Below, in pieces: positions 17,955 to 23,251 of a stretch of DNA of 64,000 nucleotides. Position numbers and translations under genes: made by a program. Positions within the stretch are counted from its first letter, which is position 1; the number at the start of each line of letters is the position of its first letter. The DNA is from Pirellulaceae bacterium (lineage in GTDB: Bacteria > Planctomycetota > Planctomycetia > Pirellulales > Pirellulaceae), in contig JAQWSU010000045.1 in NCBI GenBank assembly GCA_029243025.1, positions 806,001 to 870,000 on the forward strand, read 5' to 3'. Under the pieces are notes generated by a model. The model made no database searches and was not told the origin of the DNA. It was given only the letters and a program-made list of their open reading frames with translations.

Positions 17955-18141
17955 TTCCGTTGACCTTTCTTCGTCATGATTCACCAAGCTTGCTCGCCAT
18001 CTTAACAGATTCAACCGCCCAAAGTGCGGATCGAATAAAGTAACGCACTGCACCGAAAGGCCAGCAGCCTCCTTGAACGTAGTGCAGACTTGGTTCACGA
18101 TATCATCAGTGCACGCAACCATGTTTTGAGTGAGGCTTAAA

Positions 18142-18936
18142 GTGAGCTATGCAAACAAATACGTCGAACGGTTAGCCGAACTTGATCGCAAGGGTCACCC
18201 GTTTGTGTCGGTCACGATGGTTGATGCCATTGGCAGCACCCCCCAAGACATCGGCTCGAAAATGCTGGTCGATCAAGACGGCTTAGTGTTTGGCACGGTA
18301 GGCGGTGGTCGCGTCGAAAGACAGGCAATCGAAGCGGCCCAATCGATGCTATCACACATCGATCCCACCACGACCTCCGAATTAGTTGAATGGAATCTGC
18401 AGCAAGATGTCGGGATGACCTGCGGTGGCGTCGTGCGTCTATTCTTCGAAACCTTCAATGCGCGTCGCTGGCATATTGTTATCTTCGGCGCGGGACATGT
18501 TGCTCAGGCGTTAGCGCGATGCTTACTGTCATTGGACTGCCAAATCACTTGTATCGATCAGCGTGAAGACTGGTTGGCCCGATTCCCAACATCGCCAAAG
18601 CTTTCAATTCAGCAGAGTGATAATCCGGCGGACGAAGTCAAAATATTACGAGACGAGGATTTTGTGGTCTGCATGACGATGGGGCATCGCACCGACCGAC
18701 CTATCTTGGAGCAAATCTTTCAGCAGAATCGCGAATTTTCGTTTTTGGGGGTGATTGGCAGCCGCGCCAAGAGAAATGTGCTGGTGAGGGAACTGTTGGA
18801 CGCAGGCATTGATACACAGCGCGCCGAAGCATTTTTCTGTCCGATTGGCCTCGCGATCGGCAATAACCAACCAGCAGAAATTGCACTAAGCATTGCCGCA
18901 CAGTTATTAGAGCACCGTGACAAAATCTGGACCTAG
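18142..18936 (+). CDS. xdhC: XdhC/CoxI-family molybdenum-enzyme accessory protein
   Basis: A 264-residue protein of the XdhC family, which helps sulfurate and insert the molybdenum cofactor into xanthine dehydrogenase-type enzymes. The N-terminal XdhC_CoxI domain shows STPQDIGSKMLVDQDG, GTVGGGRVE and DVGMTCGGVVRLFFE (Cys in MTCGG). The C-terminal Rossmann-like domain shows IVIFGAGHVAQALARCL and LGVIGSRAKRN. GTG at 18142 is chosen because GAGG lies seven bases upstream; the frame also opens at GTG 18130. No molybdenum hydroxylase subunit is nearby. Its stop shares the palindrome CTAG with the stop of the convergent glycosyltransferase gene. Confidence 0.88.
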   Translation: MSYANKYVERLAELDRKGHPFVSVTMVDAIGSTPQDIGSKMLVDQDGLVFGTVGGGRVERQAIEAAQSMLSHIDPTTTSELVEWNLQQDVGMTCGGVVRLFFETFNARRWHIVIFGAGHVAQALARCLLSLDCQITCIDQREDWLARFPTSPKLSIQQSDNPADEVKILRDEDFVVCMTMGHRTDRPILEQIFQQNREFSFLGVIGSRAKRNVLVRELLDAGIDTQRAEAFFCPIGLAIGNNQPAEIALSIAAQLLEHRDKIWT

Positions 18937-19971
18937 GCGGGATCGGGTGCTTTGCCGGAAAAGTTGTCCAACGTGGCGAGTTGGGATCTTGTGATCTGGT
19001 GGTTTCTGAAAACAGTTTGCCACGCGACTGCCTGACAGTTCTGCGAAGCGCGCAGGTAGCGGTCGGGAGATGTGATCAGCCGCTGAACCTTTTCTGCAAT
19101 CTCTTCGGTGGCTCCCGGGTGGACGATCCCGCAATCCAGGATGATCTCCTCATCCTGCCAGGCCCACGTGAGAGCAGGGCCGAAGATCGTCGGAACCCCA
19201 AGCAAGCAAGAGCTCGCACGCATTGTAGGAAAAGGACTCGGACAAGCTTGCGCAAAGGCCCAACGCTACCTTGTCAAGAAGCGATCGGTACTCTTGCTCG
19301 GGCAAACTGCCAACCGCAGTCAATGACAGGGAAAAGAAATCTGCGCACTCCCACAGGAGGGGCGACGCATAATTCGTCAGAAGGTCAAAGGAGACGTTGC
19401 TTTCCCGTTCGACAATCGCCAGAGCGGCAATCTGAGAATAGGTGTTCTTGTGCCGGTAATAGTCATCCTGGTCCTGAATGGTCAACGGCAGCCAGATCTT
19501 TCTATTGCCACTCTCCGTGCATGCTCTCTTCTGCGGCAATTCATCCCTGCCCGTGAAGCCGGGCAGGCAGTGAGGAAGCCAGGTTGCGCTGAGCGTCGGC
19601 ACCGTTCTCTGGAGAAGTTCCGCTGCGTCCTTGTCAGCGCAGAACAGGCGGGTACGATGCCCCCATTCCTGTATCTCCCTCATCACTGCGATGGTACCGC
19701 TGAGTTCATTGGAGAGGTCCATTTGCAGTACAGGGCTGTGGAGGAGCACTCCATAGCGAACGTCTTTTTTTTTCCAGCGTTGCATGTGGGAGCGGCAAGC
19801 GCCGTTCAGCTGGTCGTTGAATATGACCAAGTCGCCTGACTGAGGCTGCAGGTCGCCAAGTTCAGACTCGCGGTGGAGCGACACTCCGCCGTCTGCGATA
19901 TCTCGCAGGCCTTGAAGATAGGTCGTCATTCCGCTGTGCGGATGGGGCTCCTGGTAGACGATTCGCAACAT
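18933..19971 (-). pseudogene. GT4-like glycosyltransferase, frameshifted at a CTTG repeat
   Basis: Restored, this is a 344-residue GT-B glycosyltransferase. The N-terminal half (MLRIVYQEPHPHSGMTTYLQ) leads to the donor-binding half with the EX7E motif, SESFSYNACE, then LLLGVPTIFGPALTWAW. The frame breaks inside that motif: the minus strand has three CTTG units (19210-19199) where two keep the frame (ELLLGVPTIFG). As it stands translation ends soon after in GSDDLRPCSHVGLAG, removing about 85 residues. Everything else is intact, so the lesion is recent, reversible or artefactual. It lies nine bases after the NTase-like gene, probably in one operon. Donor and acceptor sugars unknown. Confidence 0.8.
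19199..19210 (-). repeat. Tetranucleotide repeat (CTTG)3 at frameshift
   Basis: Plus strand reads CAAGCAAGCAAG. Two units would keep the glycosyltransferase in frame; the third shifts it by four bases. Short, but at the right place for slipped-strand on/off switching. Confidence 0.75.
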
Positions 19972-19980
19972 TTGCTTTGC

Positions 19981-21270
19981 CTAGTGGCTTCTCGAAGCCG
20001 TAATGGTGTCTCGTAAACGATCAAGTTGCAGTCCGGATGTCCGGTACACGTCCTCAAAGCTCGCGTTCCGTTCGGCCGATCGTCCTGCAGAAGGCATGGG
20101 CTGCGGCTCCGTCAAGGCATGTCGGTATCGCTGGATGTGGCCGGACATCGCCTCAAACAACACAGTACGTCGAGGCTCTTTCTCCTTGAACCAATCGTTC
20201 CTGTTGATCAGCCAAATTCCGTATTGGATCGAAGCGCTTTGCAGAAAATCGCTTGTCTCGGGTTCGGGGCAGGCGACGGGTTCATCCCCCAGGATTACGC
20301 AGCCGCCTTGTTTCAACGCCGCGGCTTCCAGGGGATAGGTTCTGCACCAGATGGGCCACAGTGAGATCGGGAGGAGGAGTGGCCAGCCCTTTTCCTGGCC
20401 GAAGAGGTTCGGATCGCAGCCGAATCGGTCGGCAAGAACAGGAGAGAAGGCGAAGCAGAATCGCCGGATCGATGAAATCGCCTTGTGCAGCTGCTCTTCG
20501 CTTGCATTGTCAGGAACGAGGAAACCGAGGCTGAAAGATCCATTGTCAGCAGGACTTCGGCAGAACAAGATGCTGAGTTTCTCGAGTTCCCCAAGATCGG
20601 GGACCCTGTTCTTGGTTGGCACCGCATCCACGGATGTATCGCCAGAAAGATAGTCCCGGAGCAATGGGAGCAGTTCGTGAAACTTTCGCATCGCGTCGAA
20701 ATCGCTGAACTGGGCCCGGCCGCCAGAGAGCTCGAGCTGGTCGGCCATCTTTTCCAGTGAATGCTCCAGCAACGCCGTGGAGATACCGATCGGCTGCTCC
20801 GTCTGGAAGAGATGTGGCAACACGAAGTAGTGGTACCCCATTATAAGATTTCGCCGGTGGTCACGAATGTTGGCCTGCCGATCCTTTGTGGTCATGGCAT
20901 CTTGAAGAGCTCTCTGCTCATTCGGTGAAAGTCTGTTCAGAATGATCTGGAATGTCTTGCGCGACTGCATCGGCGCACAGGCAAGTCGCAGGCTATCTGC
21001 AAATTCCTCCAGGGTCAGAATGTCCACTTCGACCAACATCGGGGCGACCCATCGCAGCTGTGCATACCGTCGCCAGAACCGCTCCAGAAACAACAGCCGC
21101 TCGGGAATCGAATGGACACGGACGATGACGGTCAAGTCAATGTCGCTGATACCCGGGCGTGGTGATGGTTGAGCCGCGCGGAAAGCGTCCTTGTTCGTGC
21201 CACTGTTCTCGCTTGATCTCACCATCAGGGCGAGGATGTCTCCTTCACGTCCCAGGAAGCGATTCACCAA
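19981..21270 (-). CDS. Nucleotidyltransferase-fold protein, divergent
   Basis: A 429-residue protein that I recognise only partly. Near residue 40, PGISDIDLTVIVR has the D-x-D of the nucleotidyltransferase (DNA polymerase beta-like) fold, and VEVDIL about 45 residues later could be the third Asp. The usual G-S before the first motif is replaced by RSS (ALMVRSSENSG), so activity is uncertain. The remaining 350 residues are helical with no known motif (FQIILNRLSPNEQRAL, LIMGYHYFVLPHLF). The start is uncertain: TTG at 21270 or GTG at 21267; the frame is open from 21291. It precedes the glycosyltransferase by nine bases. Codon use looks more G/C-ending than in flanking genes. Confidence 0.55.
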   Translation of the reverse strand: MVNRFLGREGDILALMVRSSENSGTNKDAFRAAQPSPRPGISDIDLTVIVRVHSIPERLLFLERFWRRYAQLRWVAPMLVEVDILTLEEFADSLRLACAPMQSRKTFQIILNRLSPNEQRALQDAMTTKDRQANIRDHRRNLIMGYHYFVLPHLFQTEQPIGISTALLEHSLEKMADQLELSGGRAQFSDFDAMRKFHELLPLLRDYLSGDTSVDAVPTKNRVPDLGELEKLSILFCRSPADNGSFSLGFLVPDNASEEQLHKAISSIRRFCFAFSPVLADRFGCDPNLFGQEKGWPLLLPISLWPIWCRTYPLEAAALKQGGCVILGDEPVACPEPETSDFLQSASIQYGIWLINRNDWFKEKEPRRTVLFEAMSGHIQRYRHALTEPQPMPSAGRSAERNASFEDVYRTSGLQLDRLRDTITASRSH

Positions 21271-21670
21271 CTCCAGGGCAAGCCGGTAATATTAGATGTA
21301 CAACCAGCGAAGCCCCGGAGTCTCACTGGTGGCAACAATGAGCATTCGGAAGTAGTGGAAAACACGGGCTTTGAATAAGACAGACACTGGATTGGTCGGT
21401 GAAACGCTAGGAAAGTGTAGTGAATCCTGCCGTTCCAACTTTAGCTTTCACTGCCGTATAGTAAGCGTGAAAATCTTAAATAGCAGTCATCGTGAGACCC
21501 TGCCCGCATATCTACCTTCCGACCCATCTCGAGAATGTCGTCTTATCCGGCGCAAAGCGGTCATTGGGCGTAACCGCGAGAGTGAATCTGTCGCCCACTG
21601 TTGCCCCCTTATTCGCGATATGGACGGCGGTTCGGTCAGGGGCGAATCTCTGCGGAGATATTTACCACTG
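21271..21670. other. Intergenic region upstream of NTase-like gene
   Basis: 400 bases between gltD and the NTase-like gene. On the minus strand a stretch of about 48 codons (21440 to a TAA at 21292-21294) reads VLFKARVFHYFRMLIVATSE and could be the remnant of another gene's 3' end. The rest shows nothing recognisable; overlapping short frames are not called. Confidence 0.35.
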
Positions 21671-23251
21671 CTAGTTTGCTGCGAGAGTCGAACCAAGCGA
21701 AACCCCGGGGGCGGGCAGACTGGTTTGGCCCATCAGGAATTCGTCAACGGCACGTGCTACACCGCGACCTTCGTTGATCGCCCAGACAACCAACGACTGT
21801 CCACGCCGACAATCCCCTGCGGCAAACACTCGGGGCACGTTAGTTGCATAGTCACCGTGTTCGGCTTTGAACGTCTCCCAATTACCGCGCGGATTCTGCA
21901 TTTCGAGTCCAAGCATTCCGCCAATTGTTTTTTCAGGGCCCAGGAAGCCGGTGGCAAAAAAGACCAGATCGGCAGGCCACTCTTTCTCAGATCCGGCAAC
22001 CTCTGTAAACGGGGCTTTCTCTCCCGGTTTCGACCAATCCAGTTCGACGGTCTTCACGCTTTTTACATTCCCTTGACCATCGTTGACAAATTCCTTGGTC
22101 AATACGGCGTAAGTCCGAGGATCATTTCCAAACCGAGCTTCCGTTTCCGCGTGTGAATAGTCGACACGAAAAATGCGTGGCCATTGGGGCCAGGGGTTGT
22201 TATCCGCTCGCTCTGCCGGTGCTTTATCGAGCAGTTCAAAATTGACAACGCTCTTGCACTCGTGACGCAAGGAGGTACCGATACAGTCCGCTCCCGTATC
22301 GCCACCACCGATCACAATGACGTCCTTGCCGGCTGCCGAAATAAACTTTTCATCGGCCAAGTGCGAATCGAGAAAGCTCTTCGTATTTCGCGTCAGGAAT
22401 TCCATCGCATTGTGAATCCCTTTCAGTTCTCGGCCAGGGCATTTCGCCATTGGATCGAACGGACGTGTGGCACCAGTAGCAAGCACCAGCGAGTCAAACT
22501 GTTCGAGAAGTTCGTTCGGATCAATGAATTGCACATCACAGTCACGATCTTGCATGATCCGCGTCATGTGCCCTTCGCCAAAATCCTCCTTTTTACCGAT
22601 ATGAGCATTCGTAACGAAATCAACACCCTCCGCACGCATTTGGTCAACTCGTCGCGCCACAGTCTGCTTGTCGAGCTTCATATTGGGAATGCCGTACATC
22701 AGCAAACCACCAATCCGATCGGCTCGTTCATAGACGGTCACTTTGTGCCCTGCCTGATTCAATTGTGCAGCAGCAGACAATCCTGCCGGGCCAGAACCCA
22801 CGACAGCCACCGTCTTGCCTGTGCGGCTAGACGGTGGGTTCGGAACGATCCAACCTTCTGACCAACCACGATCAACGATCGCGTTTTCGATATTCTTGAT
22901 CGTCACCGGGGGTTCAATGATCCCCAATACACAGGCCCCTTCGCAGGGAGCAGGACAAGTGCGACCGGTGAACTCAGGAAAATTGTTGGTCTTGTGGAGT
23001 CGGTCAAGCGCATCGCGCCAGCGTTCCTGGTAGACCAAGTCATTCCACTCGGGAATCAGGTTATCGATTGGGCAACCACTGTTGGATTGGCAGAACGGCA
23101 CACCACAATCCATGCAGCGAGCCCCTTGCAACTTGAGATGACTCGCATTCGCTTGCGTGAAGATTTCCAAAAAATCATTCGCCCGCTCAACCGGATCGCG
23201 GTAAGGAACAGGCTGCCGAGGAAACTCTTTGAAACCGGTTGGTTTTCCCAT
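21671..23251 (-). CDS. gltD: Glutamate synthase (NADPH) small subunit
   Basis: A 526-residue iron-sulfur flavoprotein that passes electrons from NADPH through FAD and 4Fe-4S clusters to the large subunit for glutamate synthesis. Cluster cysteines: [21 protein letters not shown] and [12 protein letters not shown] (residues about 40-110). FAD site: [18 protein letters not shown] and [18 protein letters not shown] site: [19 protein letters not shown]-terminal FAD closing motif: [20 protein letters not shown]. Slightly longer than the E. coli enzyme at the C-terminus ([15 protein letters not shown]). It lies 71 bases after gltB in the same direction and both are presumably transcribed together under the LysR-type gene. 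Confidence 0.96.

What the first reader, a model, noticed from the sequence alone, without database searches (positions are those of the whole stretch)
18933..21294. Glycosyltransferase / nucleotidyltransferase-like pair that looks imported and is butted against xdhC
The two genes form a compact unit nine bases apart, with codons that look more G/C-ending than neighbours. Their left end shares the CTAG palindrome with the xdhC stop, leaving no intergenic space, and the right end is preceded by a possible gene remnant. This pattern suits insertion of a small glycan-modifying module. The NTase-like protein has about 350 residues of unknown sequence, so the pair might be an undescribed sugar-activation system.
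Basis: partly seen in the sequence, partly recalled or inferred. Interest (0 to 1): 0.5.

Follow-up and report, generated by a model that had tools for sequence, protein, structure and literature searches.

The report
Broken imported glycosyltransferase–nucleotidyltransferase pair
Two neighbouring genes that look borrowed from another bacterium, an odd nucleotide-transferring enzyme and a sugar-transferring enzyme, sit here damaged and probably dead, but intact relatives elsewhere point to a little-known enzyme family that seems to work with sugar-chain builders.

Summary
The observation largely holds. The ORFs lie nine bases apart and the GT stop overlaps the xdhC stop in CTAG. GC3 is 0.66-0.69 against 0.552±0.030 for 37 other window ORFs. 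In the same-genus genome the flanks align but the interval holds other ORFs, and the NTase matched 0 of 59 relatives. Import is supported.

An intact sugar-activation system is not. The GT is split by one extra base relative to an intact homologue. The NTase frame has a TAA with moderate similarity continuing upstream. The same pair, intact and in the same order, lies in a MAG titled Deltaproteobacteria, after GT4 and PIG-L deacetylase genes.

The NTase is a divergent Pol-beta/aminoglycoside-nucleotidyltransferase-like protein, with no sugar-1-phosphate nucleotidylyltransferase match. Of 16 other relatives, three are fused to a GT2 domain and five have an HprK-like kinase nearby. Best reading: a decaying imported remnant of a glycan-modification operon. 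The family, not this copy, is the interesting part; its chemistry is inferred.

The parts
19201..19971 (-). GT gene, 5' part (frame A); starts ATG, 9 bases after the NTase stop; EX7E-like ESFSYNACE
   Evidence: ORF 19150-19971; aligned to residues 1-260 of the 349-residue L030 GT, 40% identity
18933..19199 (-). GT gene, 3' part (frame B); stop overlaps the xdhC stop in CTAG
   Evidence: ORF 18933-19223; aligned to residues 261-339 of L030 GT at 19199-18963, 42% identity
19199..19210 (-). frameshift zone (one base more than the intact homologue): three copies of a 4-base unit next to a short G run
19981..21291 (-). NTase open frame, 436 codons, SDID motif; alternative start TTG at 21270
   Evidence: 31.7% identity over 451 alignment columns to L030 NTase, E 1e-60
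21292..21294 (-). in-frame TAA interrupting the NTase frame
   Evidence: the family profile reads through it
21295..21351 (-). likely N-terminal remnant of the NTase, with an ATG at 21343-21345
   Evidence: profile match reaches 21351; ungapped similarity, shuffle P 0.0066 (7 relatives) and 0.0016 (L030); moderate evidence
18130..18936 (+). xdhC, flank, composition like the other window ORFs
   Evidence: Pfam XdhC_C and XdhC_CoxI; GC3 0.571
21671..23251 (-). gltD-like gene (name by eye), other flank
   Evidence: 84% protein identity to an ORF of the same-genus genome

Best explanation
The module is a horizontally acquired fragment of a glycan-modification operon (NTase then GT) lodged between xdhC and gltD, now decaying: the NTase frame is cut by a nonsense codon near its N-terminus and the GT by a single-base frameshift. 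In intact relatives the two proteins most likely act on the same glycan intermediate. The GT4-like enzyme adds a sugar. The NTase, with an aminoglycoside-nucleotidyltransferase-like fold, transfers a nucleotidyl group, or a phospho-substituent from a nucleotide donor, to a sugar hydroxyl, perhaps on an aminosugar exposed by the neighbouring PIG-L deacetylase. Shown: deviating composition, unshared interval, two frames for the GT, TAA in the NTase frame, conserved pair in L030, NTase motif, GT2 fusions in relatives. Inferred: direction of transfer, real loss of function here, shared substrate, transferred group.
For: Import: GC3 z 3.7-4.7; 0 of 59 relatives; interval not shared with the same-genus genome, flanks 67% (xdhC) and 74% (gltD) identical in DNA. 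Damage: frame change between 19201 and 19199; TAA with similarity upstream; no frame break among 43 same-genus ORF queries covering 43.9 kb of the window (HSPs with E up to 1e-20 and at least 35% identity), so a high error rate is unlikely. Pair: L030 has NTase then GT, intact, 32% and 41% identical, after GT4 and PIG-L genes. NTase class: NTP_transf_2 above cut-off in 3 of 17 family proteins, it or Polbeta below cut-off in 6; the 13 best Foldseek PDB chains are all ANT(3'')(9)/AadA/AAD(9). Glycan link: three NTase-GT2 fusions; GT2 homologues near three further NTases.
Against: No reads were available, so one or both lesions could be assembly errors. The upstream N-terminal similarity is only moderate. 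The only repeat found is internal to the module, and no tRNA lies in the window; recombinase genes were not searched for, so no entry mechanism is shown. Foldseek gave no match with E up to 0.001 (TM-scores 0.21-0.25 by query, 0.35-0.42 by target for the ANT chains); VIA Z values of about 6-7.5 are in the range the tool calls common, and its top row was an unrelated SipD helical bundle. The window NTase has no Pfam match at E up to 10; the GT only matches below cut-off that say nothing of its function (DUF3515 in both readings, TnpW in frame B). The GT pair is known from one other genome only.
Confidence: 0.6

Rival explanations
1. The pair is imported but functional: the frameshift is a sequencing error or is bypassed, and the NTase starts at the downstream TTG (21270).
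For: The frameshift lies in a small tandem repeat next to a G run. The NTase frame keeps SDID and is otherwise open for 436 codons. The C18 relative in the same genome also changes frame, in an overlap that contains a run of seven A, a kind of place where errors are common (general knowledge).
Against: No frame break seen over 43.9 kb of conserved sequence in the window. Two separate lesions would both need explaining. A start at 21270 omits the N-terminal segment present in all seven relatives compared.
Confidence: 0.22
2. Native pair, inherited vertically and lost by relatives.
For: Three more NTase relatives exist in the same genome, so the wider family is not new to it.
Against: Deviating GC3, while the C18 relative has GC3 0.49-0.54. 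No match in 59 relatives. The closest homologue found lies in a MAG titled Deltaproteobacteria.
Confidence: 0.08
3. Sugar-activation pair: the NTase makes an NDP-sugar that the GT uses.
For: Gene adjacency with a GT here and in L030.
Against: No PF00483 match in any of 17 family proteins; motif and fold matches are of the Pol-beta/ANT type.
Confidence: 0.04
4. Defence or toxin-antitoxin NTase (CD-NTase or MNT type).
For: MNT antitoxins appear among the weaker fold matches. The more distant relatives C47 and C6 match PADLOC PDC-S09 (best E 5e-5) and oligonucleotide-cyclase models.
Against: No PADLOC match at E up to 1 for the window NTase, the L030 and L033 NTases or the GT. The partners identified are glycan genes.
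Confidence: 0.04

Closest known systems
Aminoglycoside nucleotidyltransferases ANT(3'')(9)/AadA, AAD(9)
   Same: Best fold matches of a relative's model; SDxD motif; sugar-type substrates (general knowledge)
   Different: Full-length relatives of the first set are about 450-500 aa, roughly two ANT lengths; found with glycan genes; no fold match with E up to 0.001; no Pfam match of the window copy
NTP_transf_2 (PF01909) / Polbeta (PF18765)
   Same: Three relatives above cut-off and six weaker at the same motif
   Different: Window copy unmatched; the GS element is replaced by VRSS and followed by a longer loop
LicD/fukutin-type NTase-superfamily transferases (PF04991)
   Same: NTase-superfamily proteins of glycan assembly; a passage of PMC11666461 places the capsule enzyme CpsC in the LicD family, which uses CDP conjugates
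   Different: No PF04991 match in 17 family proteins
GT4 / Glycos_transf_1 (PF00534), WsaF_C (PF22772)
   Same: EX7E-like motif; sub-threshold matches of the intact homologue; weak PDB matches to two glycosyltransferases (E 0.06 and 0.19)
   Different: Below every curated cut-off
HprK-related kinase A (TIGR04352)
   Same: HprK-like proteins near 5 of 16 relatives; partial TIGR04352 match of the two tested
   Different: 34 and 38 bits against a cut-off of 200; none found in the window by the same tblastn

Membership tests
Pol-beta-type nucleotidyltransferase superfamily (PF01909/PF18765) | DxD catalytic pair | tested here: met
   D50 and D52 (with S49) invariant in 7 of 7 aligned proteins; also in 17 of 17, where the pattern used requires it
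Pol-beta-type nucleotidyltransferase superfamily (PF01909/PF18765) | hGS element before the DxD (motif recalled) | tested here: not met
   Window has VRSSEN; GS is seen in C6, C47, L044, L061, L063
Pol-beta-type nucleotidyltransferase superfamily (PF01909/PF18765) | Match above Pfam cut-off | tested here: not met
   Window none at E up to 10. Of 17 family proteins 3 above cut-off, 6 below, 8 none
Aminoglycoside nucleotidyltransferase (ANT) fold | Fold match over NTase plus helical domain | tested here: inconclusive
   Model of relative L033, pLDDT 76.1; Foldseek E 0.002-0.05; VIA Z about 6-7.5
Sugar-1-phosphate nucleotidylyltransferase (PF00483) | Pfam match | tested here: not met
   No match in 17 family proteins, E up to 10 for window and C18, up to 1 for the others
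LicD (PF04991) | Pfam match | tested here: not met
   No match in the same 17 proteins at the same limits
GT4 glycosyltransferase | EX7E motif (recalled) | tested here: met
   ESFSYNAIE in L030 GT; ESFSYNACE in the window
GT4 glycosyltransferase | Match above Pfam cut-off | tested here: not met
   L030 GT: PF00534 11.3 bits of 26.4, WsaF_C 17.2 of 27; window GT has no GT match
HprK-related kinase A partner system | HprK-like gene at the locus | tested here: not met
   No tblastn match in the window at E up to 1e-6; found at 5 of 16 other loci
Any of the above | Catalytic activity | not testable with these tools
   Needs a biochemical assay

The most novel reading that the evidence does not exclude
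A previously unnamed, sparsely spread lineage of ANT-like nucleotidyltransferases, possibly two ANT units in one chain (a built-in pseudo-dimer with one catalytic half), has been recruited to surface-glycan synthesis. It works beside or fused to glycosyltransferases, in some genomes near HprK-like kinases, and nucleotidylates or phospho-decorates glycan sugars; the window pair is a dead imported copy.
Probability: 0.35. Interest if true: 0.62.

Novelty: new variant of a known kind. Interest (0 to 1): 0.36.

Why it matters
If the family reading is right, a fold best known from aminoglycoside resistance has a home in glycan assembly. That gives a testable chemistry for gene clusters whose NTase is unannotated now, and a possible relative of resistance enzymes in ordinary metabolism. 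The window copy itself matters little beyond being a clear case of a small imported gene pair in decay.

Tried and rejected
Searches without relatives: single-protein scans of viral contigs (NTase, GT) and genome contigs (NTase), tblastn of plasmids and phages. The family appeared only with a two-row alignment; a viral scan with the same alignment found none. Single-sequence AlphaFold of the window NTase was useless (pLDDT 36.5).

Internal duplication of the NTase is not supported by sequence: hhalign of the two halves gave P 0.033 with one alignment and 0.84 with the other. It rests on VIA rows in which both model halves match ANT chains at Z about 6-7.5, so it is kept as a hypothesis only. 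SipD, IpaD, Roquin and vinculin rows were read as helical-bundle noise; that is a judgement. The viral fold library gave no match with E up to 0.001.

The phylum search with the read-through GT gave two weak local hits besides the own genome (G177 E 3.7e-5, G164 E 8.5e-4; 3 of 392 genomes in all). The only repeat of 14 bases or more around the module is a two-copy 17-base one inside it; no inverted repeats; no tRNA in the window. Promoter- and terminator-like counts are close to shuffles. can pull in distant NTases, so L044, L045, L058, L059 and L061-L063 are relatives in the wide sense. The blastn of the window region against the same-genus locus also gave two short matches inside the module at E 0.28 and 0.98, read as chance.

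Papers: searches listed 4, 0, 0, 1, 6, 0 and 0 papers; no listed title concerns this pair. Only passages of PMC11666461 were seen; the others were seen as listings.
Full report
What was checked. Composition deviates: GC3 0.663 (NTase), 0.684 and 0.693 (two GT frames) against a mean of 0.552, sd 0.030, maximum 0.609 in 37 other ORFs of at least 200 aa, picked mechanically.

Damage. The GT is not a single reading frame. The intact GT of locus L030 (349 residues as given) aligns to the window as residues 1-260 at 19971-19201 and residues 261-339 at 19199-18963 in another frame, so the window has one base more. The NTase frame is open from 21291, with a TAA at 21292-21294. A seven-row family profile aligned from window 19975 to 21351, reading through this TAA and a TAG, the latter being the gene's own stop by position. 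The 20 residues before an anchor score above shuffles at P 0.0066 against seven relatives and 0.0016 against L030 alone; against all window frames the values are 0.0043 and 0.0011. This is a moderate signal. As a control for assembly error, 43 ORFs of the same-genus genome hit the window over 43.9 kb, and none did so in more than one frame. These ORFs include mirrored antisense frames, only strong HSPs were kept, and breaks near gene ends could be missed.

Import. The NTase matched 1 of 60 genomes, its own, at E up to 0.001, and 4 of 392 of the phylum at E up to 0.01, the other three by short matches at E 0.004-0.008. The same-genus genome G001 keeps lactonase, xdhC, gltD and gltB (names partly by eye) but has two other ORFs between xdhC and gltD, and its xdhC is interrupted. 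DNA similarity covers xdhC (67%) and gltD (74%); in the interval there are only two short matches, at E 0.28 and 0.98. The one repeat found is internal and no tRNA is present; recombinase genes were not searched for, so the mechanism of entry is unknown. Which interval content is ancestral is also unknown.

Relatives. A two-row alignment found six NTase loci. In L030 (record titled Deltaproteobacteria MAG) the NTase is followed directly by the same GT. Window against L030 is 31.7% over 451 columns for the NTase and 41% for the read-through GT. Upstream in L030 lie a GT4 gene and a PIG-L deacetylase gene. The GT was found in 1 of 6 of these genomes and 1 of 148 of that genome's class; an NTase profile found 1 of 297 in its phylum. 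In all three the one hit is the L030 genome itself. The wider NTase family is sparse: 3 of 297 genomes (one already known), 2 of 82 (both already known) and 5 of 274 (one being the own genome). The own genome holds three more relatives, C18 (frame-broken), C47 and C6.

Function. Counting the window and 16 other loci, 17 family proteins were scanned with Pfam. Three match NTP_transf_2 above the cut-off (L058, L059, L063), six match it or Polbeta below it (L031, L035, L043, L044, L060, L061), and eight do not, the window among them. A model of the L033 relative, built from seven sequences including the window's (pLDDT 76.1, pTM 0.74), has ANT(3'')(9)/AadA/AAD(9) chains as its 13 best Foldseek matches, at E 0.002-0.05 and target TM-scores of 0.35-0.42. 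VIA rows place both model halves on ANT chains at Z about 6-7.5, which the tool calls common, and the top row is an unrelated helical bundle. The sequence test for duplication is not significant.

Partners point to glycans. Three of the 16 relatives are NTase-GT2 fusions (L044; L059 and L061). GT2 homologues lie near three others (L032, L033, L035), HprK-like kinases near five (L031, L033, L035, L045, L061) and ABC permease homologues near two (L031, L032). The loci differ in length, some being short contigs, so these are lower bounds. A passage of PMC11666461 shows that another branch of the NTase superfamily, LicD, acts in capsule synthesis with CDP conjugates. Transfer of a nucleotidyl or phospho group to a glycan sugar is therefore the most economical proposal, but it is inference. 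Against a glycan-only view, the distant relatives C47 and C6 match PADLOC PDC-S09 and cyclase models; the window, L030 and L033 proteins do not.

Verdict. An imported, probably dead pair. The window NTase has no match in Pfam, NCBIfam, PHROGs or PADLOC, and seven paper searches listed no title on this pair, which is limited evidence of novelty.

Noticed in passing
L059 4786-6540 (-) (own genome, contig C6): Open 584-aa fusion of an NTP_transf_2 domain and a GT2 domain, both above Pfam cut-offs.
   Followed up: partly
L005 5921-7389 (own genome, contig C18): Another NTase relative, broken into two frames in a stretch with a run of seven A; no homologue of the L030 GT in the 16 kb around it.
   Followed up: partly
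L058 5555-6667 (-) (own genome, contig C47): A 370-aa NTase relative with NTP_transf_2 above cut-off; it also matches PADLOC PDC-S09 at E 5e-5.
   Followed up: no
L018 8187-8699: xdhC of the same-genus genome G001 is interrupted by a TAG.
   Followed up: no
L018 9047-11387: The xdhC-gltD interval of G001 holds a 361-aa ORF and a LuxR-like regulator (by eye) instead of the pair.
   Followed up: no
L031 6281-7348, L033 9401-10414, L035 6696-7799, L045 7085-7789, L061 847-1917: HprK-like kinase genes recur near these NTases; the two tested match TIGR04352 only partly.
   Followed up: partly
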